From Lamellibrachia columna (taxonomy: Eukaryota; Annelida; Polychaeta; Sabellida; Siboglinidae): DNA of 64,000 nucleotides. The stretch covers positions 67,411,203-67,475,202 of the forward strand of contig OY759262.1 of NCBI GenBank assembly GCA_963662155.1, written 5' to 3'. The notes beneath the pieces are model-generated. The model was not told the origin of the DNA. It saw nothing but the letters and a program-made list of their open reading frames with translations, and did not search any database. Every line of letters begins with the position of its first letter. The first letter of the stretch is position 1. A program made the position numbers and the translations under genes. Positions 1 through 58,578 of this stretch are shown here, piece after piece.

Positions 1-3000
1 ATACACTGACAGTATTAGATACCTTGAGTAGTTCAATGAGCCTGGTGAGGATGTTTGGGGTGCCAACATGGATGTCTGAGACACACTGACAGTATTAGAT
101 ACCTTGAGTAGTTCGATGAGCCTGGTGAGGATGTTTGTCATGCCAACAGGGATGTCTGAGACACACTGACAGTATTAGATACCTTGAGTAGTTCAATGAG
201 CCTGGTGAGGATGTTTGTCATGCCAACAGGGATGTCTGAGACACACTGACAGTATTAGATACCTTGAGTAGTTCGATGAGCCTGGTGAGGATGTTTGTCA
301 TGCCAACAGGGATGTCTGAGACACACTGACAGTATTAGATACCTTGAGTAGTTCAATGAGCCTGGTGAGGATGTTTGGCGTGCCAACAGGGATGTCTGAG
401 ACACACTGACAGTATTAGATACCTTGAGTAGTTCGATGAGCCTGGTGAGGATGTTTGTCATGCCAACAGGGATGTCTGAGACACACTGACAGTATTAGAC
501 ACCTTGAGTAGTTCAATGAGCCTGGTGAGGATGTTTGGCATGCCAACAGGGATGTCCGAGACACACTGACAGTATTAGATACCTTGAGTAGTTCAATGAG
601 CCTGGTGAGGATGTTTGTCATGCCAACAGGGATGTCTGAGACACACTGACAGTATTAGATACCTTGAGTAGTTCAATGAGCCTGGTGAGGATGTTTGGCA
701 TGCCAACAGGGATGTCTGAGACACACTGACAGTATTAGACACCTTAAGTAGTTCAATGAGCCTGGTGAGGACGTTTGTCATGCCAACAGGGATGTCTGAG
801 ATACACTGACAGTATTAGATACCTTGAGTAGTTCAATGAGCCTGGTGAGGATGTTTGGCGTGCCAACAGGGATGTCCGAGACACACTGACAGTATTAGAT
901 ACCTTGAGTAGTTCGATGAGCCTGGTGAGGATGTTTGTCATGCCAACAGGGATGTCCGAGACACACTGACAGTATTAGACACCTTGAGTAGTTCGATGAG
1001 CCTGGTGAGGATGTTTGTCATGCCAACAGGGATGTCTGAGACACACTGACAGTATTAGATACCTTGAGTAGTTCAATGAGCCTGGTGAGGATGTTTGTCA
1101 TGCCAACAGGGATGTCCGAGACACACTGACAGTATTAGATACCTTGAGTAGTTCGATGAGCCTGGTGAGGATGTTTGTCATGCCAACAGGGATGTCTGAG
1201 ACACACTGACAGTATTAGATACCTTGAGTAGTTCGATGAGCCTGGTGAGGATGTTTGGCGTGCCAACAGGGATGTCTGAGACACACTGACAGTATTAGAT
1301 ACCTTGAGTAGTTCGATGAGCCTGGTGAGGATGTCTGAGACACACTGACAGTATTAGATACCTTGAGTAGTTCAATGAGCCTGGTGAGGATGTTTGTCAT
1401 GCCAACAGGGATGTCTGAGACACACTGACAGTATTAGATACATTGAGTAGTTCAATGAGCCTGGTGAGGATGTTTGTCATGCCAACAGGGATGTCTGAGA
1501 CACACTGACAGTATTAGATACCTTGAGTAGTTCGATGAGCCTGGTGAGGATGTTTGTCATGCCAACAGGGATGTCTGAGACACACTGACAGTATTAGATA
1601 CCTTGAGTAGTTCGATGAGCCTGGTGAGGATGTTTGTCGTGCCAACAGGGATGTCTGAGACACACTGACAGTATTAGATACCTTGAGTAGTTCGATGAGC
1701 CTGGTGAGGATGTTTGGCGTGCCAACAGGGATGTCTGAGACACACTGACAGTATTAGATACCTTGAGTAGTTCGATGAGCCTGGTGAGGATGTTTGTCAT
1801 GCCAACAGGGATGTCTGAGACACACTGACAGTATTAGACACCTTGAGTAGTTCAATGAGCCTGGTGAGGATGTTTGTCATGCCAACAGGGATGTCCGAGA
1901 CACACTGACAGTATTAGATACCTTGAGTAGTTCAATGAGCCTGGTGAGGATGTTTGTCATGCCAACAGGGATGTCTGAGACACACTGACAGTATTAGATA
2001 CCTTGAGTAGTTCAATGAGCCTGGTGAGGATGTTTGGCGTGCCAACAGGGATGTCTGAGACACACTGACAGTATTAGATACCTTGAGTAGTTCAATGAGC
2101 CTGGTGAGGATGTTTGTCATGCCAACAGGGATGTCTGAGACACACTGACAGTATTAGATACCTTGAGTAGTTCAATGAGCCTGGTGAGGATGTTTGTCAT
2201 GCCAACAGGGATGTCTGAGACACACTGACAGTATTAGACACCTTGAGTAGTTGTAGTTCGATGAGCCTGGTGAGGATGTTTGTCATGCCAACAGGGATGT
2301 CCGAGACACACTGACAGTATTAGATACATTGAGTAGTTCAATGAGCCTGGTGAGGATGTTTGTCATGCCAACAGGGATGTCTGAGACACACTGACAGTAT
2401 TAGATACCTTGAGTAGTTCGATGAGCCTGGTGAGGATGTTTGTCATGCCAACAGGGATGTCTGAGACACACTGACAGTATTAGATACCTTGAGTAGTTCA
2501 ATGAGCCTGGTGAGGATGTTTGGCGTGCCAACAGGGATGTCTGAGACACACTGACAGTATTAGATACCTTGAGTAGTTCGATGAGCCTGGTGAGGATGTT
2601 TGGCGTGCCAACAGGGATGTCTGAGACACACTGACAGTATTAGACACTGACAGTATTAGACACCTTGAGTAGTTCAATGAGCCTGGTGAGGATGTTTGGC
2701 ATGCCAACAGGGATGTCCGAGACACACTGACAGTATTAGACACCTTGAGTAGTTCAATGAGCCTGGTGAGGATGTTTGTCATGCCAACAGGGATGTCCGA
2801 GACACACTGACAGTATTAGACACCTTGAGTAGTTCAATGAGCCTGGTGAGGATGTTTGGCGTGCCAACAGGGATGTCCGAGACACACTGACAGTATTAGA
2901 TACCTTGAGTAGTTCAATGAGCCTGGTGAGGATGTTTGTCATGCCAACAGGGATGTCTGAGACACACTGACAGTATTAGATACCTTGAGTAGTTCAATGA

Positions 3001-5776
3001 GCCTGGTGAGGATGTTTGTTATGCCAACAGGGATGTCTGAGACACACTGACAGTATTAGACACCTTGAGTAGTTCAATGAGCCTGGTGAGGATGTTTGGC
3101 GTGCCAACAGGGATGTCCGAGACACACTGACAGTATTAGATACCATGAGTAGTTCGATGAGCCTGGTGAGGATGTTTGTCATGCCAACAGGGATGTCTGA
3201 GACACACTGACAGTATTAGATACCTTGAGTAGTTCAATGAGCCTGGTGAGGATGTTTGTCATGCCAACAGGGATGTCTGAGACACACTGACAGTATTAGA
3301 TACCTTGAGTAGTTCGATGAGCCTGGTGAGGATGTTTGTCATGCCAACAGGGATGTCTGAGACACACTGACAGTATTAGATACCTTGAGTAGTTCGATGA
3401 GCCTGGTGAGGATGTTTGTCATGCCAACAGGGATGTCTGAGACACACTGACAGTATTAGATACCTTGAGTAGTTCAATGAGCCTGGTGAGGATGTTTGTC
3501 ATGCCAACAGGGATGTCTGAGACACACTGACAGTATTAGATACCTTGAGTAGTTCGATGAGCCTGGTGAGGATGTTTGGCATGCCAACAGGGATGTCCGA
3601 GACACACTGACAGTATTAGATACCATGAGTAGTTCGATGAGCCTGGTGAGGATGTTTGTCATGCCAACAGGGATGTCCGAGACACACTGACAGTACTAGA
3701 TACCTTGAGTAGTTCGATGAGCCTGGTGAGGATGTTTGTCATGCCAACAGGGATGTCTGAGACACACTGACAGTATTAGATACCTTGAGTAGTTCGATGA
3801 GCCTGGTGAGGATGTTTGTCATGCCAACAGGGATGTCTGAGACACACTGACAGTATTAGATACCTTGAGTAGTTCGATGAGCCTGGTGAGGATGTTTGGC
3901 GTGCCAACAGGGATGTCTGAGACACACTGACAGTATTAGATACCTTGAGTAGTTCGATGAGCCTGGTGAGGATGTTTTGTCATGCCAACAGGGATGTCTG
4001 AGACACACTGACAGTATTAGATACCTTGAGTAGTTCGATGAGCCTGGTGAGGATGTTTGGCGTGCCAACAGGGATGTCTGAGACACACTGACAGTATTAG
4101 ATACCTTGAGTAGTTCAATGAGCCTGGTGAGGATGTTTGTCATGCCAACAGGGATGTCTGAGACACACTGACAGTATTAGATACCTTGAGTAGTTCAATG
4201 AGCCTGGTGAGGATGTTTGGCATGCCAACAGGGATGTCCGAGACACACTGACAGTATTAGATACCTTGAGTAGTTCAATGAGCCTGGTGAGGATGTTTGT
4301 CATGCCAACAGGGATGTCCGAGACACACTGACAGTATTAGATACCTTGAGTAGTTCGATGAGCCTGGTGAGGATGTTTGGCATGCCAACAGGGATGTCCG
4401 AGACACACTGACAGTATTAGATACCTTGAGTAGTTCGATGAGCCTGGTGAGGATGTTTGTCATGCCAACAGGGATGTCTGAGACACACTGACAGTATTAG
4501 ATACCTTGAGTAGTTCAATGAGCCTGGTGAGGATGTTTGTCATGCCAACAGGGATGTCTGAGACACACTGACAGTATTAGATACCTTGAGTAGTTCGATG
4601 AGCCTGGTGAGGATGTTTGGCATGCCAACAGGGATGTCCGAGACACACTGACAGTATTAGATACCATGAGTAGTTCGATGAGCCTGGTGAGGATGTTTGT
4701 CATGCCAACAGGGATGTCCGAGACACACTGACAGTACTAGATACCTTGAGTAGTTCGATGAGCCTGGTGAGGATGTTTGTCATGCCAACAGGGATGTCTG
4801 AGACACACTGACAGTATTAGATACCTTGAGTAGTTCGATGAGCCTGGTGAGGATGTTTGTCATGCCAACAGGGATGTCTGAGACACACTGACAGTATTAG
4901 ATACCTTGAGTAGTTCGATGAGCCTGGTGAGGATGTTTGGCGTGCCAACAGGGATGTCTGAGACACACTGACAGTATTAGATACCTTGAGTAGTTCGATG
5001 AGCCTGGTGAGGATGTTTTGTCATGCCAACAGGGATGTCTGAGACACACTGACAGTATTAGATACCTTGAGTAGTTCGATGAGCCTGGTGAGGATGTTTG
5101 GCGTGCCAACAGGGATGTCTGAGACACACTGACAGTATTAGATACCTTGAGTAGTTCAATGAGCCTGGTGAGGATGTTTGTCATGCCAACAGGGATGTCT
5201 GAGACACACTGACAGTATTAGATACCTTGAGTAGTTCAATGAGCCTGGTGAGGATGTTTGGCATGCCAACAGGGATGTCCGAGACACACTGACAGTATTA
5301 GATACCTTGAGTAGTTCAATGAGCCTGGTGAGGATGTTTGTCATGCCAACAGGGATGTCCGAGACACACTGACAGTATTAGATACCTTGAGTAGTTCGAT
5401 GAGCCTGGTGAGGATGTTTGGCGTGCCAACAGGGATGTCCGAGACACACTGACAGTATTAGATACCTTGAGTAGTTCGATGAGCCTGGTGAGGATGTTTG
5501 TCATGCCAACAGGGATGTCTGAGATACACTGACAGTATTAGACACCTTGAGTAGTTCGATGAGCCTGGTGAGGATGTTTGTCATGCCAACAGGGATGTCT
5601 GAGACACACTGACAGTATTAGATACCTTGAGTAGTTCAATGAGCCTGGTGAGGATGTTTGTCATGCCAAGAGGGATGTCCGAGACACACTGACAGTATTA
5701 GATACCTTGAGTAGTTCAATGAGCCTGGTGAGGATGTTTGGCGTGCCAACAGGGATGTCCGAGACACACTGACAGT
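1..5776. repeat. 80-bp minisatellite derived from a VPS54 exon and its donor site, ~72 copies
   Basis: On the gene strand each unit is the last 71 bases of the 5706-5811 exon followed by nine intronic bases (GTATCTAAT). Copies differ by few substitutions (GTATCT or GTGTCT donors, GGC or GAC changes). One unit near 1333 is shortened and others near 2250 and 2645 carry small insertions. The array runs off the left end of the window. The many short ORFs in it are exon echoes, not genes. Confidence 0.97.
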
Positions 5777-5811
5777 ATTCAACAACCATCTTCAACAGCA
5801 GAAGTGCAGTC
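5706..5811 (-). CDS. VPS54: VPS54 exon between two arrays made from its own edges
   Basis: 106 nt encoding (G)[35 protein letters not shown]. It matches vertebrate GTVLLLIRIILEYCQCV...LTRLSDLLK. The acceptor is TTTGTGTTCAG/G and the donor is CTCAAG/GTATCT. The donor and 71 exon bases make up the 80-bp unit of the array at 1-5776. The acceptor and six exon bases recur in the 29-bp array at 5805-7740. The next exons (starting near FNSR in other animals) must lie below position 1. Confidence 0.95.
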
Positions 5812-23800: not shown

Positions 23801-25044
23801 TACAAGTCGTATCTTATCTTGAAGGTAATCATCAGGATTCCCTCATACAAGTCGTATCTTATCTTGAAGGTAATCATAAGGATTCCCTCAAACAAGTGGC
23901 ATTTTATATTGAAGGTAATCATCAGGATTCCCTCATACAAGTGGCATCTTATCTTGAAGGTAATCATCAGGATTCCCTCATACAAGTTGTATCTTATCTT
24001 GAAGGTAATCATCAGGATTCCCTCATACAAGTTGTATCTTATCTTGAAGGTAACCATCAGGATTCCCTCATACAAGTTGTATCTTATCTTGAAGGTAATC
24101 ATCAGGATTCCCTCATACAAGTCGTATCTTATCTTGAAGGTAATCATCAGGATTCCCTCAAACAAGTGGTATCTTATCTTGAAGGTAATCATCAGGATTC
24201 CCTCATACAAGTCGTATCTTATCTTGAAGGTAATCATCAGGATTCCCTCAAACAAGTGGTATCTTATCTTGAAGGTAATCATCAGGATTCCCTCATACAA
24301 GTCGTATCTTATCTTGAAGGTAATCATCAGGATTCCCTCAAACAAGTGGTATCTTATCTTGAAGGTAATCATCAGGATTCCCTCATACAAGTGGTATCTT
24401 ATCTTGAAGGTAATCATCAGGATTCCCTCATACAAGTGTATCTTATCAGCCAGCTCTGGACCTATACTTGAAAAAATATTCGTTAAATTTATCAGCTATG
24501 CACTTTTTATTTTTTGTTAATTTACCATCAATTAGTAATTCGTCATTAGATAAAAATATTTCCTTCCTTCCAATAATACTCTGATCTCTTTCTGCTACGG
24601 TAATAGGATAATTTAATTGATTTCTATATCTTTTATAATTGATTTCATTGTAAACAGTAGCTTTTTTCAAGTAATACATGTACAATTTGTGTTTAGTTCT
24701 AATGGAATTTCTAAATCCTGTAGTAATCCATGGTTTATGTTTTCTTGTCCTGATATGTTTATTACCTAAGAGAAATGAGTTATTATGTGAAAAGTAAAAT
24801 TTCATTAAGGAATATAGAATAACTTTTTTGAGTATCTCTGGATGCATCAACTTCATCCCAGCATATTTGATCTATACTGTCATTAACTGTAGCCATAGTC
24901 TGCACATTATATAATCTAGTTTCTATGGTCGTATCTACCTTTGTGATATTAGTAGATTTAGTAACTAAAAATATTGGTAAGTGATCGGAAATATCTGTAT
25001 ATATTATTCCATGCACTTGATAATTTGCATCAAGTATACCATTG

Positions 25045-25119
<75 letters not shown>

Positions 25120-40100: not shown

Positions 40101-40672
40101 TCAAAGATTTGAAAAAAAATATGAATTTTTCATTACACTGCCTGCAATTGTTACTTAAGCTGTTCACACACTCCATATCTGGACATCAGTGAACAGGATT
40201 TGCGATAGGCTAAATCAGTTGAGGATGGAGTTCTAAAAACACATAAAAACAACATTTGTGGCAAGGAAAACTATCTTAACTATCCCTATCAGTTTAGTTT
40301 TAGTCATCATTAATGCCAATGAAAAAACAACAGGCACTTTTAAAAGAAATATAGAAACTACGAGTTTAATGATGAACTGAGCTTTTTATTTTAGTGAAGT
40401 GGCCCAAGACATATACGAATAAAGACACATGATTTGGTAGGATATTGATAAATGTTGGAGTCACAGAATTGAACTAAAGGGCTTTAATAGAGAGAAAAGG
40501 CCTACGTGGTTGTGTTGGTTTCGACCTCCTCCACAGCCGCCACAGACTCGATCACAGTCTACAAACAAACACTAGCTCTCTCAAATAGGTGCAGTAAACA
40601 CCTTTGCAATGCTGTTGCCTATTTGAAAACAGTTCTAACAGAAAATCTATGTCGACGTTTTGTGAGTAGTTA

Positions 40673-40736
<64 letters not shown>

Positions 40737-52700: not shown

Positions 52701-55700
52701 CCTCTGTCAGGGGTCGGTTGAGGTCAGCTGTGGCATATCGTACAAAGTCCTCCTGCATCATCTTGTCTATGAGTATCTCCATCTCTGCCAACTGAGACCC
52801 CAAATGTCTACAAAACAAACATCTCATGTCTGAAGTTTATCTTACCCTTTACAAATGTCTACAAAACAAACATCTCATGTCTGAAGTTTATCTTAACCTT
52901 TACAAATGTCTACAAAACAAACATCTCATGTATGAATAGTTTATCTTAACCTTTACAAATGTCTACAAAACAAACATCTCATGTCTGAAGTTTATCTTAC
53001 CCTTTACAAATGTCTACAAAACAAACATCTCATGTATGAATAGTTTATCTTAACTTTTACAAATGTCTACAAAACAAACATCTCATGTCTGAATAGTTTA
53101 TCTTAACCTTTACAAATGTCTACAAAACAAACATCTCATGTATGAATAGTTTATCTTCACCTTTACAAATGTCTACAAAACAAACATCTCATGTCTGAAG
53201 TTTATCTTAACCTTTACAAATGTCTGCAAAACAAACATCTCATGTATGAATAGTTTATCTTAACCTTTACAAATGTCTACAAAACAAACATCTCATGTCT
53301 AAATAGTTATCTTAACTTTTACAAATGTCTACAAAACAAACATTTCATGTCTCAATAGTTTATCTTAACTTTTACAGACCCGGATGTTTTTTGAAATGTT
53401 TTTTTTTATATCTTAAAACACATGTGATTTCATTATTACCAAGCCTTTCCCTACACATATATACATTTGTGGAAATGTAACATCCTCACAAATCCATTGA
53501 TAAAGAGAAAGAAGTAATTTTGAAGTTATGTGACATAATAATTAATTTTAAATGCCCACAAAATATTAGGAGCACTAGCGTTCTATCGAACATCGCATAC
53601 AATAACAATATAATTAATAGTCACAGATGACTAATGATGGCATGGTTAGAAAGAACACTAATATTTATACAAAGTGGCAAAATATGAAGGCAATCAGTAC
53701 ATTATTTGACATTGTATACAGACATCATTGGCAATGCAGATGACACAAAAGTATTCAGAAAGGTTACTAATGATACAGATAAACAAAGTTTACAGGATGA
53801 TCTAGATAAACTAGATAAATGGTCAGAAAAATGGCAAATGTTATTCAATTTTGGGAAGTGTAAATGCATACACTTAGGACATGGAAACATGGATGAAGAA
53901 TATAAAATGGGGGATGCTGTACTAGGTAGAACCACACAAGAAAAGGACTTAGGAGTAACATTTAGTGCTGACATGAAAGTTTCAGAGCAATGTGGGATTG
54001 CTGCTTCAAAAGGAAATAAAATTCTAGGGCTAATTAGGAGAACTATCACATATAAGGAGAAACAGCTAATTGTACCCCTGTACAAAGCAATAGTTAGACT
54101 ACATTTGGAATATTGTATTCAAGCATGGAGGCCATGTCGTAATGGACATAGACAAGCTAGAAAGAATACAATGAAGAGCAACTAAAATTATTCCAGAATT
54201 GAGAGACCTTAGTTACGAAAGCCGCTTATTACAATCTGGTTTGACAACACTAGAGACCAGGAGACTAAGAGGAGACCAAATAGAAGTATTTAAAATAGTG
54301 AACAGTTATGAGGATGTTGATAGGAATATGTTCTTCAAACTTAAAGAAGGCAGTAGAACCAGAGGACACAAAGCAGCATTAGTTAAGGAGCAGTGTAGGT
54401 TGGACATGAGAAAGTACTCTTTCTCACAGAGGGTGATAAATGAATGGAACAAACTGCCAAATGATTGTGTTAATGTTTTAAAATAGAATTGACAGATATC
54501 TGATAAGGGCGGGCTACACATAGATGAGAAAATTGTTGGACTCTTGATAAGCCAATGGCTTCCTTGTCCACTTGCCATCTGGAACTTGTTGTTTGGGATG
54601 GCAATCTTGTTAAATCTTGTTAAAAGTGTAAAAATCCAGACGATTTCTATATGTACAGGCTTGCCAACTTATCTATCAAAATAAAACTACTAGTACTAGA
54701 TGAATAATGATTGCATATTTAGAAAGAACACTAATATTTACACAAAGTGGCAAACTATGAAGGTCATCACTACATTATTTGACATTTTGGACAGATGCCA
54801 GACGCCAAGTGTAAAAATCCAGACAACTTCTATACATATCATCGTCAGAAACAGTTGCTTCACTGTCACTCATCGAGTGTTCAGACATGGGCGATATTAT
54901 ACACCGTCGTCACTGGCACTGTTGTCTTCACCAGAATATCTATCACTATCACTCATATTGTTGATAATCCGGAGTACTTCATTTGGATCCGTGATCAACC
55001 AGATATCTGATAAGGTGCCATTGTTGTTTTATCTGGACAAATTACATTTACAGGCCTCAAACTAAACATTTTGTGACGCCATTACAACCAGGCAATGCCT
55101 ACACTACACCTCTATCGATCAATACCAATACCCCCCTCTGCACAGCAATAGAAAAGTCACAACTGACCGTATATGACCACCCCATGCCATCGCGCAATAT
55201 ACTGCATGACCAGTCTTGACAAACATACATGAAGAGTTAATGAGACAAACAGACCTGAAGAACTAATGAGACAAACAGACAGGAAAACTTTATGAGACAA
55301 ACAAACCTGAAGATTTTATGAGACAAACAGACCAGAAGACCTAATGAGACAAATAGACCTGAAGATCTAATGATACATACAAATGTGAAGACCTAAAGAG
55401 ACAAACATACCTGAAGACTTAATGAGACATACATACCTGAAGACTTAATGAGACAAACAGACATGAAGATCTAATGAGACAAACATACCTGAGGACTTAA
55501 TGAGACAAACAGATCTAAAGACTTAACGAGACAAACAGACCTGAAGATCTAATGAGACAAACAGATCTGAAAACCTAATGAGACAAACAGACATGAATAC
55601 TTAAGGAGACAAACAGATCTGAATAACTAATGAGACAAACAGACCTGATTAACTAATGAGACAAACAGACCTGAAGCTGTGCAGACCAATGAGCTCCTGA

Positions 55701-58025
55701 GACAAGACCTCCTGGGTCGTCGCAATCAGGTCAAGTGCGCCAACAAACTCGTTGGTTGCCAGTAGCAACTGCAGAGTGGGCTGCGTCTGGTGAACAGTGG
55801 CCATGAGTCGCAACTGCAAAATACACATTATCCAGCTACCTCAATCTTAACTATATTTACAATATCTTTGAGCACAGCAAAAACCTGAAATTGTCACAAT
55901 CAGTGTTCAATGTAAGACGAATATCCAATAGTAATGTATAGTAATCACATAGGACAATTCTTCTAGACATGCGGTTATAATTTATTATACAACCTTTCAT
56001 CTTGTGACAAATCTATGGTGAAAATGACTTGAAAGCTTGTCGTTGGCACTTGAGAATACCTGTCAAAAATGTTCCTTCCTACTGCAGGTCAACAGGTTTC
56101 TTCTGCCCCATCAGTGTAGCCACAGACAGACTGCAGAAATGAGAATGAGTTCAGGATGAGATGACAACCTGCACATTGCTGCCTCTACTGACCCACCTTG
56201 TTGAAGAGTTCAGGATGAGATGACAACCTGCACATTGCTGCTTCTACTGACCCACCTTGTTGAAGAGTTCAGGATGAGACGACAACCTGCACACTGCTGC
56301 CTCTACTGACCCACCTTGTTGAAGAGTTCAGGATGAGATGACAACCTGCACATTGCTGCCTCTACTGACCCACCTTGTTGAAGAGTTCACGATGAGATGA
56401 CAACCTGGACATTGCTGCCTCTACTGACCCACCTTGTTGAAGAGTTCAGGATGAGATGACAACCTGCACATTGCTGCCTCTACTGACCCACCTTGTTGAA
56501 GAGTTCACGATGAGATGACAACATGCACATTGCTGCCTCTACTGACCCACCTTGTTGAAGAGTTCAGGATGAGATGACAACCTGCATATTGCTGCCTCTA
56601 CTGACCCACCTTGTTGAAGAGTTCAGGATGAGATGACAACCTGCACATTGCTGCCTCTACTGACCCACCTTGTTGAAGAGTTCACGATGAGATGACAACC
56701 TGGACATTGCTGCCTCTACTGACCCACCTTGTTGAAGAGTTCAGGATGAGATGACAACCTGCACATTGCTGCCTCTACTGACCCACCTTGTTGAAGAGTT
56801 CAGGATGAGATGACAACCTGCACATTGCTGCCTCTACTGACCCACCTTGTTGAAGAGTTCACGATGAGATGACAACCTGCACATTGCTGCCTCTACTGAC
56901 CCACCTTGTTGAAGAGTTTGACGAGGTTCGCACGAGACTGGCTGAATTTCATCAGTTTGAGTGGGACCGCAACCAACACTTCCTCCAAACGATGTACTTT
57001 CTCTCTGCCAACACCAATCAAAAAGTTTGGACATGTTAGTCTTAACAGTAACAGTCATAAGCAAATTTTGAACACATTTGACGATAACTTTACAAATTAT
57101 TTTATAAATATAATTCAGTAAGTTAATCATATTGGACACTATCACAAATTGCTTGGCATCTGTGCTATCAGCTTTTGTGATAACTGCATGGCTTCCATCA
57201 CTATGCCAAGTCAGGATTAATATTTTCCATAGATTATGTCTTGTGATTATGAGAATTACTTTATGAGAATACCACTGCTTAAAATTTCATATTTCTCACA
57301 TTGGCAGTTTCTTTGTAGCACTTGTTTAGGCAAACCAATAAAATAACATTTATATCAGATAACGTACAACAGTTTCTTTGTAGCACTTGTTTAGGCAAAC
57401 CAATAAAATAACATTTATATGAGATAACGTACAACAGTTTCTTTGTAGCACTTGTTTAGGCAAACCAATAAAATAACATTTATATGAGATAACGTACAAC
57501 AGTTTCTTTGTAGCACTTGTTTAGGCAAACCAATAAAATAACATTTATATGAGATAACGTACAACAGTTTCTTTGTAGCACTTGTTTAGGCAAACCAATA
57601 AAATAACATTTATATCAGATAACGTACAACAGTTTCTTTGTAGCACTTGTTTAGGCAAACCAATAAAATAACATTTATATGAGATAACGTACAACAGTTT
57701 CTTTGTAGCACTTGTTTAGGCAAACCAATAAAATAACATTTATATGAGATAACGTACAACAGTTTCTTTGTAGCACTTGTTTAGGCAAACCAATAAAATA
57801 ACATTTATATGAGATAACGTACAACAGTTTCTTTGTAGCACTTGTTTAGGCAAACCAATAAAATAACATTTATATCAGATAACGTACAACAGTTTCTTTG
57901 TAGCACTTGTTTAGGCAAACCAATAAAATAACATTTATATGAGATAACGTACAACAGTTTCCTTCACCTGCACATACCAACACATACTGTAGAACAAATA
58001 TACACACACATATATATATATGTAC

Positions 58026-58059
<34 letters not shown>

Positions 58060-58227
58060 ATTATTTGCATGACCTAAACCATACCTCAGTTGTTTGATAG
58101 CAGAGCAGGTTTTGAGCATGTTTTCTTGCAGCTTGTCTTGAGATGACATTGCGAGAAAGAAGGACTCGGACCGCAGAGAAATCTGCTTTGCAATCTGCAC
58201 CTCAACCATGTCCAAGTAGTGGTGTAG
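5706..58227 (-). CDS. VPS54: VPS54 (GARP complex subunit), partial gene, 16 exons
   Basis: VPS54 joins VPS51, VPS52 and VPS53 in the GARP tethering complex at the trans-Golgi network, which receives retrograde vesicles from endosomes. Sixteen minus-strand segments match successive parts of animal VPS54 in the right order: 58227-58085, 57004-56905, 55813-55671, 52807-52681, 43707-43600, 40558-40506, 38510-38414, 37240-37199, 32130-31940, 31312-31180, 30834-30703, 30460-30411, 28342-28260, 19919-19884, 14275-14224 and 5811-5706. Lengths sum to 1596 nt and every junction keeps the frame. Landmarks are [41 protein letters not shown] and VEYCQCV. The part present runs from the coiled-coil N-terminal region into the start of the C-terminal Vps54 domain. 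First and last exons lie outside. Introns are almost wholly minisatellites and transposon remains. No frameshift or stop was seen, so it looks functional. About 35-40 residues of the variable linker between 37199 and 32130 may be missing or diverged. Confidence 0.93.
5805..7740. repeat. 29-bp minisatellite from the acceptor of the same exon, with 174-bp higher-order period
   Basis: On the gene strand units read like GTTTGTGTTCAG/GACTGC, i.e. the intron end and first exon bases of the 5706-5811 exon. Six variant units form a 174-bp higher-order repeat: the GAGCAC variant recurs at about 6041, 6215, 6389 and 6563, then after 145 (5x29). Long ORFs across it arise because the unit lacks stops. 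Confidence 0.93.
7741..8015. repeat. Degenerate ~20-30 bp CAACAACAGGTTAC repeat
   Basis: Intronic run of imperfect GCAACAACAGGTTACCTGTA-like units; no gene seen. Confidence 0.8.
8090..12785 (-). mobile_element. Non-LTR retrotransposon (Jockey/CR1-like), degraded, interrupted by an array
   Basis: Read on the minus strand. The endonuclease region at about 12750-11712 shows [17 protein letters not shown], a [11 protein letters not shown] box (usually GDFN) and a GISDHDSVF box. Reverse transcriptase follows: HGFRKRR near 11260, [20 protein letters not shown] near 9100-9050, a degenerate QGSV motif, the catalytic LFADDTLL near 8840-8870 and C-terminal GYLGV/LGWESL-like segments to ~8225. Several frameshifts and a 28-bp array (9137-11243) break it. 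Segments 8105-8190 and 8645-8733 are copies of each other, as are ~8330-8445 and ~8455-8565. It is a dead copy in a VPS54 intron. Confidence 0.85.
9137..11243. repeat. 28-bp minisatellite inside LINE reverse transcriptase, ~75 copies
   Basis: Unit GCTGCTAGGTCTTGTAGCGT plus eight bases. It is amplified from the LINE codons for LQDVAA-type residues between the HGFRKRR and DFSKAF motifs. Because 28 is not a multiple of three it destroys the LINE frame. Variation is mostly ATGATCA versus ATGGTCA. Confidence 0.95.
12786..13365. other. Unique intronic sequence
   Basis: AT-rich, no exon or repeat recognised. A short plus-strand open stretch at about 13160-13260 has no recognisable family. Confidence 0.6.
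13369..13635. mobile_element. Possible Tigger/pogo-like DNA transposon end
   Basis: It starts CAGTAAAACCTATCTTAGCA, followed by repeated TGTCCATAACGAACACC/TGGACA motifs typical of Tigger-type ends. No transposase is seen. The other end was not located. Confidence 0.4.
13636..13785 (+). mobile_element. LINE 3'-end fragment
   Basis: It encodes [15 protein letters not shown], resembling the [12 protein letters not shown] region of the LINE at 53716, then jumps to the shared 3' tail with CTTGTTAAATCTTGTTA. It is an internally deleted fragment. Confidence 0.55.
13880..14122. repeat. ~29-bp CATGAACACTACTACATCAT repeat, ~8 copies
   Basis: Tandem units of ATCATGAACACTACTACATC lie about 100 bases from the 14224 exon donor, on its intron side. 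Confidence 0.9.
14224..14275 (-). CDS. VPS54: VPS54 exon, start of C-terminal domain
   Basis: 52 nt encoding (D)[16 protein letters not shown](G), matching vertebrate RKPAEVLIVEGQQYAVVG. The acceptor is TCTGCTCTGTTCCAG and the donor GTTGG/GTAAGT, both strong. The split codons G/AC and GG/G agree with the exons on either side. Confidence 0.9.
14276..15400. other. Intronic AT-rich region with short GTCACTTTTCTAT repeats
   Basis: Contains GGTCACTTTTCTATATAGAA-type repeats near 14590-14660 and 14995-15115 flanking an AT-rich stretch (14660-14990). No gene is recognised. Confidence 0.6.
15411..15972. mobile_element. Element with long imperfect inverted arms (MITE-like)
   Basis: The arm from 15411 (GGTCTGGGGGGGTTGCCCCC...) matches the reverse complement of the segment ending at 15970 over about 165 bases. 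A further direct copy of the right arm lies at about 15650-15795. No protein is seen. It is probably a non-autonomous DNA element or a palindromic rearrangement of one. Confidence 0.5.
15973..16304. other. Unique intronic sequence
   Basis: No gene, array or element recognised. Confidence 0.5.
16305..16812. repeat. 23-bp minisatellite, ~22 copies
   Basis: Unit AGGCATGTAAACACCACTGT plus CTA. It ends at the 3' end of the LINE that begins at 16815. Confidence 0.95.
16815..18150 (-). mobile_element. 5'-truncated LINE, reverse transcriptase and 3' end
   Basis: Minus strand. It shows [19 protein letters not shown], then [19 protein letters not shown], catalytic [24 protein letters not shown] and [10 protein letters not shown] frameshift near 17403 leads into LYKAIV...[21 protein letters not shown] and INEWNKL-like segments to about 16970. 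The 3' tail is the one also seen at 13700, 44330 and 54500. The family is CR1-like and the copy is inactive. Confidence 0.88.
18151..19190. other. Unique AT-rich intronic sequence
   Basis: Includes a TTAATTAAATTAA-rich stretch at about 18415-18530. No exon, gene or element is recognised. Confidence 0.6.
19195..19345. repeat. 25-bp minisatellite, ~5 copies
   Basis: Unit GTATATGAGAAATGAGAGCA plus GCTCT. On the minus strand it contains an acceptor-like TTTCTCATATACAG, but no VPS54 exon is adjacent. Confidence 0.85.
19400..19918. repeat. 42-bp minisatellite copying almost the whole 36-nt VPS54 exon and its donor, ~12 copies
   Basis: On the gene strand each unit encodes [14 protein letters not shown] in the exon frame and contains AAAGAG/GTAAGA. 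One unit next to the exon is 39 bp. All are multiples of three and no stop occurs through the array. See the exon at 19884-19919. Confidence 0.95.
19884..19919 (-). CDS. VPS54: VPS54 36-nt microexon with tandem donors
   Basis: 36 nt encoding (G)[11 protein letters not shown](G), in the place of the vertebrate KIALPEKKSG linker. The strong acceptor (CTTCCTGTTTCAG) and donor (AAAGAG/GTAAGA) fit. The split glycine codons on both sides fit the neighbouring exons (G/GT before, G/AC after). About 33 of its 36 bases plus the donor are repeated in the 42-bp array that follows. The exon frame stays open through the whole array, so further donors could be used in frame. Confidence 0.82.
19985..22015. 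repeat. 47-bp (some ~43-bp) minisatellite, ~44 copies
   Basis: Unit GATGAGTTAGTAGACCAGGG ATGGAGAGACAGTGAGAGGG plus seven bases. Shorter units lack a few bases around GATGAACGATGG. It lies upstream of the 36-nt exon on the gene strand and has no visible exon sequence. Confidence 0.95.
22756..22941. repeat. 62-bp tandem triplication within the LINE
   Basis: Three near-identical copies starting TGTAAATGTTGTTATTCCTC. They duplicate LINE codons for [14 protein letters not shown] residues. Confidence 0.93.
23590..24440. repeat. 45-bp minisatellite in LINE coding sequence, ~19 copies
   Basis: Unit TATCTTATCTTGAAGGTAAT plus 25 bases. In the LINE frame it repeats [15 protein letters not shown], derived from the single [15 protein letters not shown] at 24440-24400. 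Being a multiple of three it leaves frames open, giving ORFs of about 300 codons that are not genes. Confidence 0.95.
25044..25115. repeat. (TA)n microsatellite, ~35 units
   Basis: Pure TA run placed inside the LINE endonuclease, between the TVIDNI and ISDHLPIF motifs. Confidence 0.97.
25345..27295. repeat. 33-bp minisatellite built from an endonuclease motif, ~59 copies
   Basis: On the minus strand it repeats [11 protein letters not shown] in frame, the conserved YRPPN motif of LINE endonucleases. On the plus strand it gives a 700-codon open frame by chance. Substitutions (TGG/CGA/GTG, CACC/CACT) are shuffled between units. Confidence 0.96.
27831..28259. other. Unique AT-rich intronic sequence
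   Basis: No repeat or gene; it leads into the donor side of the 28260 exon. Confidence 0.6.
28260..28342 (-). CDS. VPS54: VPS54 exon
   Basis: 83 nt encoding (S)[27 protein letters not shown], ending with one base of a glycine codon. [20 protein letters not shown] is the hallmark of VPS54. The acceptor is CCTCTTGGCCAG and the donor is ACTG/GTCAGT. Confidence 0.95.
28385..29630. repeat. ~30-bp CTACTTGTGAGTGACCACAA minisatellite, ~41 copies in two blocks
   Basis: Units CTACTTGTGAGTGACYAYAA plus CTGAACA. Irregular units at 28735-28920 separate two more regular blocks. It begins about 45 bases upstream of the 28342 acceptor and does not contain exon bases. Confidence 0.93.
29631..30045. repeat. 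41-bp minisatellite, ~10 copies
   Basis: Unit ACCAGTCGACATGTCCTTGC TGTCAGAGAATGGTCCCTGT C. Open in several frames by chance. Confidence 0.93.
30046..30410. other. Unique AT-rich intronic sequence
   Basis: No gene or array seen before the donor of the 30411 exon. Confidence 0.6.
30411..30460 (-). CDS. VPS54: VPS54 short exon
   Basis: 50 nt encoding [16 protein letters not shown] plus AG of a split serine codon. The [13 protein letters not shown] motif is diagnostic of VPS54. The acceptor is CTACTTCTCAG and the donor is CTCAG/GTATGG. Confidence 0.95.
30703..30834 (-). CDS. VPS54: VPS54 exon
   Basis: 132 nt, phase 0 at both ends, encoding [29 protein letters not shown] and ending SLQSQ. It matches DGFLEKL...LSR...F..DTE..CG...ALQSQ of VPS54. 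The acceptor ends TTGTAG and the donor is AGCCAG/GTAGCC. Confidence 0.95.
31080..31145. repeat. 17-bp short repeat, 3-4 copies
   Basis: Repeated AGTTGTCATTCTAACAT about 35 bases from the donor of the 31180 exon. Confidence 0.85.
31180..31312 (-). CDS. VPS54: VPS54 exon
   Basis: 133 nt encoding (T)[31 protein letters not shown] and ending LMLARGK. It corresponds to vertebrate PGGVDIM...CHDRAVKFLMSRAK. The acceptor is ACTGTTGCCAG and the donor GGCAAG/GTAGGT. A second diverged copy of the acceptor region lies ~82 bp upstream (31393-31451). Confidence 0.93.
31470..31640. repeat. ~40-46 bp repeat, 4 copies
   Basis: Units GAGAGAGCACTGGGACAAGT plus ATGGATAAAGCCTTGTGTTA within the intron upstream of the 31312 exon. 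Confidence 0.8.
31641..31939. other. Unique intronic sequence
   Basis: No repeat or gene recognised between the 40-46 bp repeat and the donor of the 31940 exon. Confidence 0.5.
31940..32130 (-). CDS. VPS54: VPS54 exon, acidic linker
   Basis: 191 nt encoding [20 protein letters not shown] and later an acidic run [12 protein letters not shown], ending in HLT with a split T codon (AC/T). It precedes the GGDVDM exon and corresponds to the low-complexity serine/acidic linker of vertebrate VPS54, so sequence similarity is low. The phase and strong borders (TTGTTTCAG acceptor, CCAC/GTAAGT donor) support it. Its first 36 bases are repeated with the acceptor in the 46-bp array upstream. Confidence 0.78.
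32090..32705. repeat. 46-bp minisatellite from the acceptor and first 36 bases of a VPS54 exon, ~13 copies
   Basis: On the gene strand every unit has GTTGTTTCAG/GTGATGTCTT and continues to TTAGACCTG, the start of the 31940-32130 exon. The period is 46, so upstream acceptors would shift the frame. Confidence 0.95.
32730..34415 (+). mobile_element. LINE fragment with AP-endonuclease domain
   Basis: Plus strand. After a GC-richer leader (32730-33240), the endonuclease runs from about 33270: [43 protein letters not shown], then an in-frame TGA near 33474, [15 protein letters not shown] at about 33662, and [11 protein letters not shown] near 33848. A frameshift near 33880 leads into [17 protein letters not shown] sequence and a linker to 34410. 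The reverse transcriptase is missing. Proteins of this type are often mis-named craniofacial development protein 2-like in invertebrate genomes. It is inactive. Confidence 0.85.
34416..34500 (-). mobile_element. tRNA-derived SINE head
   Basis: On the minus strand it shows an A-box-like GGCCTAGCAGTTAGAACGT and a B-box-like GGTACGAATCC at tRNA spacing, with a CTCTCTTAATCGAGAG stem between them. It is diverged (B box normally GGTTCGAATCC). Its first ~28 bases recur in the 55-bp array next to it. Confidence 0.55.
34500..37118. repeat. 55-bp minisatellite: SINE head fused to a VPS54 exon fragment, ~47 copies
   Basis: On the minus strand each unit joins GGGGCATGGTAGCCTAGCAG TTAGAACGT (SINE 5' end) to CATCAGTGCCTTGTTA, a 16-base match to the start region of the 31940-32130 exon. 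The right end (37100-37136) still shows TTCAG/GTGATATGAGCATCAG, a diverged copy of that exon's acceptor with an in-frame TGA. Variants are CATGCC/CGTGCC and CATTC/CGTTC. Confidence 0.9.
37199..37240 (-). CDS. VPS54: Probable VPS54 small exon
   Basis: 42 nt, phase 0, encoding [14 protein letters not shown] and ending at a strong donor (GTGAGTAT). It sits where VPS54 has a moderately conserved helix after the LQRVK block; similarity is weak (a pattern of hydrophobic residues ending in a D). The acceptor GTACACGAG has a poor pyrimidine tract. The neighbouring 24/26-bp array carries variants of the same acceptor (GGGTACAGGAG/ACACA), which supports the border. An alternative start is the ACACAG six bases in. 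Confidence 0.55.
37285..38162. repeat. 24/26-bp CCTGTACCCCCTGCACCCTT minisatellite, ~34 copies
   Basis: Strongly strand-asymmetric: C/T-rich on plus, G/A-rich on the gene strand. Gene-strand units GGGGGTACAGGAGACACAAG resemble the acceptor region of the 37199-37240 exon (GGGGGTACACGAGACACAG). All six frames are open and none is a gene. Confidence 0.93.
38219..38263. other. Perfect 19-bp inverted repeat with 7-nt loop
   Basis: CATAATTCACATCATATCA, loop ACATAAG, then its exact reverse complement. It sits in the intron 3' of the 38414 exon on the gene strand. Confidence 0.9.
38414..38510 (-). CDS. VPS54: VPS54 exon
   Basis: 97 nt encoding (T)[23 protein letters not shown] and ending VLRRTK. 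It matches the KLADQMRML...QWFDLL segment of VPS54. The acceptor is TATGTGAAG/G, chosen over a CAG eight bases further in because only this choice restores LADQMR and the frame. The donor is ACCAAG/GTGAGA. The acceptor plus about 14 exon bases is repeated in the 34-bp array upstream. Confidence 0.9.
38495..38705. repeat. 34-bp minisatellite from a VPS54 acceptor, 6 copies
   Basis: Gene-strand unit contains TATGTGAAG/GCTGGCAGACC, the acceptor and first ~14 bases of the 38414-38510 exon. Copies are identical or nearly so, which suggests recent amplification. Confidence 0.95.
39110..39500. repeat. ~31-bp TTGTTAGGCTTCACATACAA repeat, ~11 copies
   Basis: Shares CTTCACATACAACACAAACA with the 34-bp array at 38495, so it is probably an older, diverged expansion of the same acceptor region. 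Confidence 0.85.
39501..40505. other. Unique AT-rich intronic sequence
   Basis: No gene or element recognised between the 31-bp repeat and the donor of the 40506 exon. Confidence 0.6.
40506..40558 (-). CDS. VPS54: VPS54 short exon
   Basis: 53 nt encoding [17 protein letters not shown], with the next T codon split AC/G. It lies between the KTVIKQ exon and the LADQMR exon, and replaces the vertebrate VxxKVSQTEEID segment at the same place. The acceptor is GTTTGTTTGTAG and the donor CCAC/GTAGGC. Phase fits on both sides. No array crosses its borders. Confidence 0.82.
40645..40766. other. (TA)n tract enclosed by ~32-bp inverted arms
   Basis: ATCTATGTCGACGTTTTGTG at 40645 is mirrored by the reverse-complement arm ending at 40766 with two mismatches; the centre is a TA run with one TACATA interruption. 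It may be a small hairpin element or MITE. Confidence 0.8.
40855..43612. repeat. 64-bp minisatellite from a VPS54 donor, ~42 copies
   Basis: Gene-strand unit contains GACTGTCATCAAACAG/GTAT (or TTAAACAG, GTACAC), the end of the 43600-43707 exon with its donor. Left-edge units (40820-40980) are irregular. Variants TGATGA/TAATGA, CCTTC/TCTTC and GTGTA/GTATA are mixed along the array. Confidence 0.96.
43600..43707 (-). CDS. VPS54: VPS54 exon
   Basis: 108 nt, 36 codons, phase 0 at both ends. It encodes [24 protein letters not shown] and ends KTVIKQ. This corresponds to the vertebrate block ending IIKQ. The acceptor is GTGTGTGCAG and the donor is AAACAG/GTATAC. The last ~24 exon bases plus the donor form part of every unit of the 64-bp array at 40855-43610. 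Confidence 0.94.
43808..43935. repeat. 64-bp direct duplication
   Basis: CATAACATGTTCATGTTGCA with following bases occurs twice, 64 bases apart. It does not match the 64-bp array. Confidence 0.85.
43960..44070. repeat. ~15-17 bp ACCCATACATGCAGT repeat
   Basis: Short imperfect tandem repeat related to the GTACCCATACATG units at 44425-44615. Confidence 0.75.
44090..44425 (+). mobile_element. LINE 3' tail with internal 17-bp array
   Basis: AAAATTGACAGATATCTGAT and later GACTCTTGATAAGCC, CTTCCTTGTCCACTTGCC, ending in AATTTTGTTAAAT, are the same 3' tail as the LINE at 53716-54625. Between them about 13 copies of AGTAAGGGCGTACTGTA (17 bp) are inserted, made from the AAGGGC part of the tail. Confidence 0.75.
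44425..44615. repeat. ~45-bp TACCCATACATGTGGTAGCA repeat, ~4 copies
   Basis: Alternating GGTACCCGTATGTAGGGTAC and CATACATGTGGTAGCAGTAC blocks. Confidence 0.85.
44715..45060. repeat. 40-bp minisatellite, ~9 copies
   Basis: Unit ATACAACAATGTCACAAAGT ATGCCACAAGTTCACTAAAT; decays on the right side. Confidence 0.95.
45330..47528. repeat. 39-bp minisatellite in two subfamilies, ~56 copies
   Basis: The left block (to ~46345) has ATGACAAGGTTTGTACCTCC CAGTGGTGGAAAGTTAGAT. The right block has GACAAGTTGTGCACCAACCA with GTGATGGAGAGTTAGACAT. The switch is abrupt near 46345. A 273-bp (7-unit) internal duplication is marked by GAGAATTAGA at about 46809 and 47082. The 415-codon open frame reflects the period being a multiple of three. 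Confidence 0.95.
47529..48490. other. Mostly unique intronic sequence
   Basis: A few decayed GGAGGGTCTCAG units to 47680, then AT-rich sequence. No gene is recognised. Confidence 0.6.
48495..48605. repeat. Three outlying copies of the 39-bp repeat
   Basis: CAGAGATGGAGAGTTAGACA and TGGTGGAGAGTTAGACATGA match the 45330-47528 array, so the spacer at 47529-48490 probably split it. Confidence 0.9.
48630..51065. repeat. 60-bp minisatellite with shortened ~46-bp units and a 569-bp block duplication
   Basis: Unit GTTAGTGTCTCTGTCACCCA GTGTTCTTGTGGGGACACTG TCACAAGTACTACTCTAGCA. Between ~49340 and ~50330 many units lack GACACTGTCACAA-type bases and are ~46 bp. A block around 49340-49900 is repeated 569 bp further on. 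Confidence 0.95.
51236..51375. repeat. (CA)n-rich microsatellite with CACACG/CATGCA interruptions
   Basis: Imperfect CA repeat of about 140 bases. Confidence 0.97.
51376..52077. other. Unique AT-rich intronic sequence
   Basis: The pair ATTCCATATGTACGGA occurs twice (51620, 51690). No gene is recognised. Confidence 0.6.
52078..52565. repeat. 26-bp minisatellite, ~18 copies
   Basis: Unit GGACAGTCCCATAGCTACAT TACTTG. It ends about 115 bases from the donor of the 52681 exon and has no exon bases. Confidence 0.95.
52681..52807 (-). CDS. VPS54: VPS54 exon
   Basis: 127 nt encoding (R)[17 protein letters not shown], then DLNRPL and AMDE. It continues the HSFRHLGSQL...LIDKMM...DLNRPL block of VPS54. 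The codon for R is split AG/A over the previous intron. The acceptor is TTTTGTAG and the donor is GATGAG/GTGAGT. The 51/54-bp array at 52800-53375 copies the acceptor with the first seven exon bases. Confidence 0.95.
52800..53375. repeat. 51/54-bp minisatellite from a VPS54 acceptor, ~11 copies
   Basis: Gene-strand units carry TTTGTTTTGTAG/ACATTTG, the acceptor and first seven bases of the 52681-52807 exon. Units with GAAGTT are 51 bp and those with GAATAGTT 54 bp. A stop in the exon frame lies in each unit. Confidence 0.93.
53636..54840. repeat. Two copies of a ~130-bp sequence, the first split by a LINE
   Basis: GAAAGAACACTAATATTTA...TTATTTGACATT occurs at 53650-53712 and 54720-54785. The following AAGTGTAAAAATCCAGAC occurs after the LINE (54627) and uninterrupted at 54808. 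The second copy therefore looks like the empty site. Confidence 0.75.
53716..54626 (+). mobile_element. 5'-truncated CR1-like LINE, C-terminal reverse transcriptase and 3' tail
   Basis: Plus strand. It begins at [15 protein letters not shown] (catalytic FADD changed to NADD), then [54 protein letters not shown], a frameshift near 54180, [18 protein letters not shown] and [17 protein letters not shown]. The 3' tail ends CTTGTTAAATCTTGTTAAAA. Same family as 16815-18150. Inactive. Confidence 0.88.
54841..55219. other. Unique intronic sequence
   Basis: The minus strand has a short [23 protein letters not shown] open stretch near 54880-54980, too short to assign. Confidence 0.5.
55220..55670. repeat. 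26-bp minisatellite from a VPS54 donor, ~17 copies
   Basis: Gene-strand unit contains CTTCAG/GTCTGTTTGTCTCA, the donor of the 55671-55813 exon with six exon bases. Several copies have lost the GT. Confidence 0.93.
55671..55813 (-). CDS. VPS54: VPS54 exon, highly conserved core
   Basis: 143 nt encoding [15 protein letters not shown], then [16 protein letters not shown] and ELIGLHSF. This is the most conserved stretch of the protein and is nearly identical to vertebrate VPS54 as I remember it. The acceptor is TTTTGCAG and the donor CTTCAG/GTCTGT. The donor with six exon bases is repeated in the 26-bp array at 55220-55670. Confidence 0.96.
56130..56910. repeat. 59-bp minisatellite from a VPS54 donor, ~13 copies
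   Basis: Gene-strand unit contains AACTCTTCAACAAG/GTGGGT followed by CAGTAGAGGCAGCAATGTGC. It copies the last ~14 bases and the donor of the 56905-57004 exon. Every copy keeps a consensus donor. Confidence 0.95.
56905..57004 (-). CDS. VPS54: VPS54 exon
   Basis: 100 nt. With the preceding exon it gives 34 residues that align without gap to the segment before KLMATVHQ in animal VPS54. It starts with R(split)[10 protein letters not shown] and ends [11 protein letters not shown]. The acceptor is GGTGTTGGCAG and the donor is AACAAG/GTGGGT. The last ~14 exon bases and the donor are copied in the 59-bp array that follows downstream on the gene strand (56130-56904). Confidence 0.92.
57305..57962. 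repeat. 65-bp minisatellite, ~10 near-identical copies
   Basis: Unit ACAGTTTCTTTGTAGCACTT GTTTAGGCAAACCAATAAAA plus 25 bases. Almost no divergence (TATGAG/TATCAG), so recent. No exon bases. Confidence 0.96.
58085..58227 (-). CDS. VPS54: VPS54 exon, start of coiled-coil region
   Basis: 143 nt, phase 0 at its start, two bases left over at its end. It encodes [17 protein letters not shown], later [14 protein letters not shown] and AIKQL, matching the LSHYLD...VEV...QIS block that I know from animal VPS54. The acceptor is CCGACTGCAG and the donor is GAG/GTATGG. The 43-bp array upstream stops at the acceptor; only the true copy carries the CAG. This is the most 5' exon seen in the window. Confidence 0.93.
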
Positions 58228-58230
58228 CTG

Positions 58231-58578
58231 CAGTCGGAGTAGACAGCTGGTCAGAATCATACAGTAGTACAAACAGTCGGAGTAGACAGCTGGTCAGAAT
58301 CATACAGTAGTACAAACAGTCGGAGTAGACAGCTGGTCAGAATCATACAGTAGTACAAACAGTCGGAGTAGACAGCTGGTCAGAATCATACAGTAGTACA
58401 AACAGTCGGAGTAGACAGCTGGTCAGAATCATACAGTAGTACAAACAGTCGGAGTAGACAGCTGGTCAGAATCATACAGTAGTACAAACAGTCGGAGTAG
58501 ACAGCTGGTCAGAATCATACAGTAGTACAAACAGTCGGAGTAGACAGCTGGTCAGAATCATACAGTAGTACAAACAGG
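58231..58578. repeat. 43-bp minisatellite abutting a VPS54 acceptor, 8 copies
   Basis: Gene-strand units carry the pyrimidine tract GTCTACTCCGACTG of the 58227 exon's acceptor but continue TTTGTAC instead of CAG, so the AG exists only in the last copy. Copies are nearly identical. Confidence 0.95.

What the first reader, a model, noticed from the sequence alone, without database searches (positions are those of the whole stretch)
1..58578. VPS54 introns are filled with minisatellites made from the gene's own exon-intron borders
At least eight of the 16 exons (5706, 19884, 31940, 38414, 43600, 52681, 55671, 56905), with the 37199 exon a weaker ninth, have a neighbouring array whose unit contains the exon edge plus its real splice site. 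Five are donors (80, 42, 64, 26, 59 bp), and the rest acceptors (29, 46, 34, 51/54, weakly 24/26 bp). Units all differ in length and sequence, so these are independent events, not spread of one satellite. I know of no description of a gene whose splice borders are repeatedly amplified in this way. It may be neutral slippage in a hyper-amplifying genome, or the borders (R-loops, bound spliceosome, replication conflicts) may seed it.
Basis: partly seen in the sequence, partly recalled or inferred. Interest (0 to 1): 0.92.

Follow-up and report, generated by a model that had tools for sequence, protein, structure and literature searches.

The report
Splice-border minisatellites in worm VPS54
In about half of a VPS54 gene from a likely annelid worm, ten of thirty exon borders lie inside arrays that repeat the border along the adjoining intron (up to 72 copies), an oddity described in lancelets as "mirages", and the hundreds of intact spare splice sites this leaves are predicted to be ignored by the cell.

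Summary
I rebuilt 15 VPS54 exons on the minus strand, all GT-AG, one open frame of 518 codons; the closest named protein is from the tubeworm Ridgeia (327 of 423 identical). Minisatellites cover 59.9% of the window (55 arrays); 10 of 30 exon edges, on 8 exons, lie inside one. Intronic copies keep GT in 146 of 149 donor copies and AG in 89 of 91 acceptor copies. The kind is not new: tandem repeats of intron-exon boundaries are described in amphioxus genes as "mirages" (PMC3087553, PMC3902484). Against uniform founding in today's collapsed introns ten edges is far too many (1.83 expected, 0 of 20000 runs), but with once-short introns of 250-350 bp it is not (P 0.42-0.14). A residual excess exactly at edges remains (P 0.009). 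Best reading: general minisatellite birth in once-short introns, tolerated where whole splice borders are copied. The genome-wide rate could not be measured. New member of a known kind, at unusual density.

The parts
3..5779 (-). E15 donor array: 80-bp unit (74 exon + 6 intron bases), about 72 copies, reaches the window's left end
   Evidence: 71 intronic copies, GT kept in 71
5706..5811 (-). VPS54 exon E15
5806..7746 (-). E15 acceptor array: 29-bp unit, 67 copies, 6 exon bases
   Evidence: AG kept in 62 of 64 copies
14224..14275 (-). VPS54 exon E14; no edge array at the main TRF setting
19408..19915 (-). E13 donor array: 42-bp unit, 12.1 copies, 32 of the 36 exon bases in the array; open in the coding frame throughout
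19884..19919 (-). VPS54 exon E13, a 36-nt micro-exon
28260..28342 (-). VPS54 exon E12
30411..30460 (-). VPS54 exon E11
30703..30834 (-). VPS54 exon E10
31180..31312 (-). VPS54 exon E9; decayed copy of its acceptor border at 31374-31450
31940..32130 (-). VPS54 exon E8
32095..32704 (-). E8 acceptor array: 46-bp unit, 13.3 copies, 36 exon bases
34482..37117 (-). second-generation array: 55-bp unit, about 48 copies, carrying a 19-nt piece of exon E8; a 46-column E8 border copy (78%) sits at 37102-37143
38316..38418 (-). E7 donor array: 39-bp unit, 2.6 copies, 5 exon bases (weak)
   Evidence: no copy passed the 24-base test
38414..38510 (-). VPS54 exon E7, flanked by border arrays on both sides
38495..38700 (-). 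E7 acceptor array: 34-bp unit, 6.1 copies, 16 exon bases
39130..39510 (-). diverged array related to the E7 acceptor array (79% over 58 columns)
40506..40558 (-). VPS54 exon E6
40936..43627 (-). E5 donor array: 64-bp unit, 42.1 copies, 28 exon bases
43600..43707 (-). VPS54 exon E5
52681..52807 (-). VPS54 exon E4
52801..53376 (-). E4 acceptor array: 53-bp unit, 10.9 copies, 7 exon bases
55218..55676 (-). E3 donor array: 26-bp unit, 17.7 copies, 6 exon bases
55671..55813 (-). VPS54 exon E3
56147..56918 (-). E2 donor array: 59-bp unit, 13.1 copies, 14 exon bases
56905..57004 (-). VPS54 exon E2
58085..58227 (-). VPS54 exon E1 (first exon in the window; the N-terminal exons were not found up to 64000)
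58231..58577 (-). 43-bp array, 8.1 copies, 4 bases from the E1 acceptor; does not contain the border

Best explanation
Ten tandem arrays in this VPS54 gene each repeat one of the gene's own exon borders together with its splice site (the structure called a 'mirage' in amphioxus); they likely arose by ordinary tandem duplication at random places in once-short introns, were likely expanded by slippage or unequal exchange, and are predicted to be tolerated because only the outermost copy adjoins a whole exon. Shown: the ten arrays, their copy numbers and the intact splice signals in the copies. Inferred: that the founding duplications fell at random. The border sits at a position inside the unit that cannot be told from uniform, arrays also arose inside a LINE, and they crowd towards exons in general. 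Inferred: that the true junctions are still used, because the spliced protein aligns with relatives across the junctions. Predicted: a copy inside the intron lacks the rest of the exon and its enhancers, so exon definition picks the outermost site, and the intron grows without harm. A duplication that takes the whole border leaves each copy with its own signals, whereas one wedged between branch point and acceptor would not, which may be why few arrays survive in the first 50 intron bases.
For: 15-exon frame, all GT-AG, no stop and alignment with Ridgeia and Owenia across junctions. 10 of 30 edges in arrays, stable to TRF settings. Exon share of the unit from 0.13 to 0.93, KS p 0.42 against uniform. 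28 of 55 arrays within 200 bp of an edge in the collapsed gene, 13.1 expected; 7 of 14 introns collapse to 182-564 bp. With 250-350 bp introns ten edges has P 0.42-0.14. Array 9138-11243 repeats codons of the LINE reading frames that flank it (weak Pfam matches), so array birth is general. Edge arrays are no more alike within than other arrays of five or more copies (p 0.35). Introns at E1, E2/E3, E3/E4, E4/E5 and E5/E6 look shared with other animals, so the arrays came after the introns.
Against: Among the 28 arrays within 200 bp of an edge, 10 sit on it where 16% (4.5) is expected (P 0.009), a residual excess the short-intron model does not remove. The former shortness of the long introns is not shown: no relative's introns could be fetched, and needs a mean near 350 bp or less (450 bp gives P 0.03). 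Edge arrays are longer than the others (median 593 against 206 bp, p 0.02). No RNA was available, so correct splicing is an inference.
Confidence: 0.6

Rival explanations
1. Splice borders themselves seed the arrays: R-loops, paused polymerase, bound spliceosome or a sequence property of borders would make tandem duplication more likely exactly there.
For: 10 edges against 1.83 expected with today's collapsed length (0 of 20000 runs); 6 against 1.32 when at least 14 exon bases are asked for (P 0.0014); 10 of 28 near-exon arrays lie on the edge (P 0.009).
Against: The border's place in the unit is compatible with uniform (KS p 0.42, ten values only), so nothing is anchored at the splice site; donors and acceptors do not differ (6 and 4 of 15, p 0.70); arrays also cluster up to 200 bp from edges without touching them (18 of 45, P 0.003); the window was picked because it shows the pattern.
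Confidence: 0.22
2. The arrays are kept by selection because repeated splice sites are useful, for example as a splicing regulator or as a source of in-frame repeat isoforms at E13.
For: Splice dinucleotides are kept in 235 of 240 intronic copies. The E13 array is open in the coding frame to its end, so each of its 11 spare donors would add 13 or 14 codons without a stop.
Against: High identity alone explains the intact sites: most columns of the units do not vary. The other five donor arrays meet an in-frame stop 3 to 14 codons past the exon. A unit that is a multiple of three without a stop is expected in roughly one array of six.
Confidence: 0.08
3. The arrays are assembly artefacts.
For: Long tandem arrays are often mis-assembled; no reads were available.
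Against: Units differ from each other in most arrays, ten unrelated units are affected, and the exon frame is intact across all of them. PMC3902484 argues the same for lancelet.
Confidence: 0.05
4. The introns themselves were made by tandem duplication of AGGT-containing exon pieces (intron gain), and the arrays are the remains.
For: Units carry exon ends with AG/GT, as that model needs; PMC3087553 proposes it for amphioxus globins.
Against: Predicted proteins from other animals break at the same places E1, E2/E3, E3/E4, E4/E5 and E5/E6 with what read like retained introns, so these introns, four of which carry border arrays, are old. The other introns were not tested.
Confidence: 0.04

Closest known systems
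Amphioxus 'mirages' (Adh3; globins BflGb6 and BflGb9; troponin C; PGBD5)
   Same: [quoted passage not shown] PMC3902484).
   Different: Likely annelid, not a lancelet; 10 of 30 edges in one gene; up to 72 copies and 5.8 kb, against 3-6 units in BflGb6. Splicing and length instability were checked there and could not be checked here.
Human IFI6 (6-16) minisatellite with multiple splice donor sites (Turri 1995)
   Same: By its title, a minisatellite that supplies repeated splice donors (seen only as a reference in PMC4526556).
   Different: One array at one border; details were not read, the paper is not held.
Human internal tandem repeats at exon-intron boundaries in segmental duplications (PMC2812944, passages)
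   Same: Minisatellites of about 30-bp units at exon-intron boundaries that can change splicing.
   Different: Scattered over many recent paralogues, about four units each; here many large arrays in one conserved gene.
Intronic minisatellites of earthworm metallothionein genes (PMC12783039, passages)
   Same: Annelid gene whose first intron is filled with minisatellites.
   Different: The passages seen do not describe units that contain exon borders.
Tandem arrays of dual-specific AGGT splice sites in polyubiquitin (PMC10809524, abstract and outline)
   Same: Repeated units each with a usable AG/GT.
   Different: There the repeats are coding and the sites are used; here the repeats are intronic and use is unknown.

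Membership tests
mirage (tandem repeat of an intron-exon boundary) | array unit spans an exon-intron boundary of the host gene | tested here: met
   10 of 30 edges
mirage (tandem repeat of an intron-exon boundary) | both 5' and 3' boundaries can be affected | tested here: met
   6 donors, 4 acceptors
mirage (tandem repeat of an intron-exon boundary) | many units carry AG/GT splice signals | tested here: met
   GT in 146 of 149, AG in 89 of 91 intronic copies found; the E7 donor array gave no copy by that test
mirage (tandem repeat of an intron-exon boundary) | regular splicing is not disturbed | not testable with these tools
   no RNA; indirect support only: open frame and protein alignment across junctions
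mirage (tandem repeat of an intron-exon boundary) | length instability between haplotypes and in soma | not testable with these tools
   one assembly only
mirage (tandem repeat of an intron-exon boundary) | reported lineage is cephalochordate | tested here: not met
   VPS54 is 77.3% identical to Ridgeia and 49.4% to Branchiostoma on the same columns; lineage is where it was found, not part of the definition
intron gain by AGGT tandem duplication | the intron is new in this lineage | tested here: not met
   intron positions E1, E2/E3, E3/E4, E4/E5 and E5/E6 look shared with other animals; the remaining positions were not tested
dispersed satellite family | arrays share one unit sequence | tested here: not met
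   borders match their own arrays; cross-matches are weak apart from 34482-37117 (E8) and 39130-39510 (E7)

The most novel reading that the evidence does not exclude
In this worm lineage splice borders are themselves preferred birth places of minisatellites, so that a conserved housekeeping gene carries hundreds of full-strength decoy splice sites that the spliceosome must pass over, and at the E13 micro-exon a ready-made in-frame repeat cassette waits to become coding.
Probability: 0.2. Interest if true: 0.75.

Novelty: new member of a known kind. Interest (0 to 1): 0.5.

Why it matters
If correct, mirages are not a lancelet peculiarity but appear where intronic minisatellites run wild, here probably in an annelid. 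The gene is then a natural stress test of splice-site choice: at least 235 intact copies of real splice sites lie in its introns, and how the cell finds the right one bears directly on exon definition. Border arrays also offer raw material for new introns and, as at E13, for coding repeats.

Tried and rejected
The 37199 exon: dropped, since E7 joins E8 in frame and in relatives. An N-terminal exon between 58600 and 64000: none found. PDB search with provisional exons: no match. Strict coverage null: arrays cover 59.9% of the window, so random points would hit arrays about as often or more often than edges do (10 of 30); this counts expansion, not founding, so I used founder placement instead, and I state it because it is the simplest null and shows no enrichment. 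In one search I replaced TRF's representative period by the basic unit for four arrays (80, 27, 60, 41) and dropped TRF rows with a period under 10 before merging to 55 arrays. Polarity of unit divergence along seven arrays: no consistent trend (rho from -0.28 to 0.22; alignment without gaps, poor for E4). Papers: ten searches, all used, of an open-licence library only. PMC4974935 and PMC4039745 were seen in listings only.
Full report
What is there. The minus strand of the window carries the middle part of VPS54, a subunit of the GARP tethering complex (Pfam Vps54_N and Vps54, both above cut-off). I located the exons by tblastn with relatives fetched, set the borders by GT/AG and phase and obtained 15 exons, 1554 nt, all GT-AG, one open frame of 518 codons. 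The gene runs off both ends of the window. On the same columns the protein is 77.3% identical to Ridgeia piscesae (327 of 423), 62.6% to Paralvinella, 58.9% to Owenia and 49.4% to Branchiostoma. An annelid, perhaps a siboglinid or near relative, is therefore the likely source; the window itself is not named. The Ridgeia protein covers E1 to E11 only and has extra residues at the E4/E5 junction.

Arrays. Tandem Repeats Finder gives 55 arrays (period 10 or more, overlapping rows merged) covering 38329 of 64000 bases. Ten of the 30 exon edges, on eight exons, lie inside an array: donors of E2, E3, E5, E7, E13, E15 and acceptors of E4, E7, E8, E15. The count is 9 to 12 of 30 under four other settings. 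The unit holds 5 to 74 exon bases. Copies in the introns keep the splice signal: GT in 146 of 149 donor copies found (71 of 71, 11 of 11, 41 of 41, 11 of 14, 12 of 12) and AG in 89 of 91 acceptor copies (62 of 64, 12 of 12, 5 of 5, 10 of 10); the small E7 donor array gave no copy by that 24-base test. By a recalled donor matrix, the spare donors score as high as the true one in 56 of 71, 9 of 11, 20 of 41, 6 of 14 and 12 of 12 copies.

Independence and second generation. Each border matches its own array; other matches are weak. Two exceptions are informative. The 55-bp array at 34482-37117 carries a 19-nt piece of exon E8, and a 46-column copy of the E8 border sits at its 5' end (37102-37143). 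The array at 39130-39510 is a diverged relative of the E7 acceptor array. A decayed copy of the E9 acceptor border lies at 31374-31450. So border copies can be carried into the intron and amplified again.

Is it more than expected? Three answers, all from this one window, which was chosen because it shows the pattern. (a) Arrays cover 60% of the window and 10 of 30 edges: by coverage alone there is no enrichment. (b) If each array began as one unit placed at random in the collapsed gene (27659 bp), 1.83 edges are expected and none of 20000 runs reached ten; with at least 14 exon bases, 6 against 1.32, P 0.0014. (c) The collapsed length overstates the founding space if introns were short before the arrays and the LINE insertions. 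Seven of 14 introns collapse to 182-564 bp. With introns of 250, 350 or 450 bp the chance of ten edges or more is 0.42, 0.14 or 0.03 (53 arrays, two in LINE-like sequence left out). Arrays crowd near exons generally: 28 of 55 within 200 bp of an edge, 13.1 expected, and 18 of the 45 non-edge arrays do so (P 0.003). Against this reading, 10 of those 28 sit exactly on an edge where 4.5 are expected (P 0.009). The border's place inside the unit is compatible with uniform (KS p 0.42), which speaks against anchoring at the splice site, on ten values only.

Mechanism. Array birth is general here: the 28-bp array at 9138-11243 (97% matches) repeats codons (IITLQDLAA, read from the sequence) found in the reverse-transcriptase-like frames on both sides of it (Pfam RVT_1 for 11181-11570 at E 6.8e-06, below its cut-off), so it arose after that LINE inserted. 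I take the border arrays as the same process hitting borders of once-short introns. The introns are older than the arrays at five places: predicted proteins of other animals break at E1, E2/E3, E3/E4, E4/E5 and E5/E6 with what read like retained introns. A homologous reading frame from an unnamed source, P0051, crosses E15 with no repeat in that frame on either side, so the E15 arrays are not ancestral to both. Use of a spare donor would bring an in-frame stop within 3 to 14 codons in five of six donor arrays; at E13 the frame stays open to the end of the array and each spare donor would add 13 or 14 codons. That the true sites are used is inferred from the protein alignment; exon definition is the mechanism I predict.

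What is known. [quoted passage not shown] PMC3902484 (one passage) adds troponin C and PGBD5. PMC2812944 (passages) treats human repeats at exon-intron boundaries; Turri 1995 is known to me only as a reference. Ten searches of an open-licence library showed no report of such border arrays outside chordates; subscription papers are mostly absent from it. The Ridgeia genome paper passages speak of intron and repeat sizes, not of border arrays.

Verdict. A real, dense set of mirages, probably in an annelid: a new member of a known kind. Whether borders are preferred cannot be settled without the genome.

Noticed in passing
19408-19919: The 36-nt micro-exon E13 and its 42-bp array stay open in the coding frame, so spare donors would give in-frame 13- or 14-residue repeats.
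   Followed up: partly
34482-37143: A 55-bp array of about 48 copies that carries exon E8 sequence 2 to 5 kb from the exon; its unit also holds a tRNA-like stretch (recalled resemblance, untested).
   Followed up: partly
9138-11243: A 28-bp array inside a LINE reading frame, repeating its reverse-transcriptase codons.
   Followed up: partly
25341-27291: A 33-bp array, 59 copies, open in both strands over long stretches, reading VVYRPPNTIVG on the minus strand, which recalls a LINE endonuclease motif; the flanking frames gave no Pfam match.
   Followed up: partly
31374-31450: Decayed 79% copy of the E9 acceptor border, about 81 bp upstream of the true one.
   Followed up: partly
58231-58577: Near-perfect 43-bp array (8.1 copies) that starts 4 bases from the E1 exon and leaves the acceptor CAG outside.
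   Followed up: no
62762-64000: 29-bp array with 42.7 copies that runs off the right end of the window.
   Followed up: no
P0054 (Ridgeia protein): The Ridgeia gene model has extra residues at E4/E5 and an odd stretch in place of the start of E1, perhaps wrong borders chosen in prediction.
   Followed up: no
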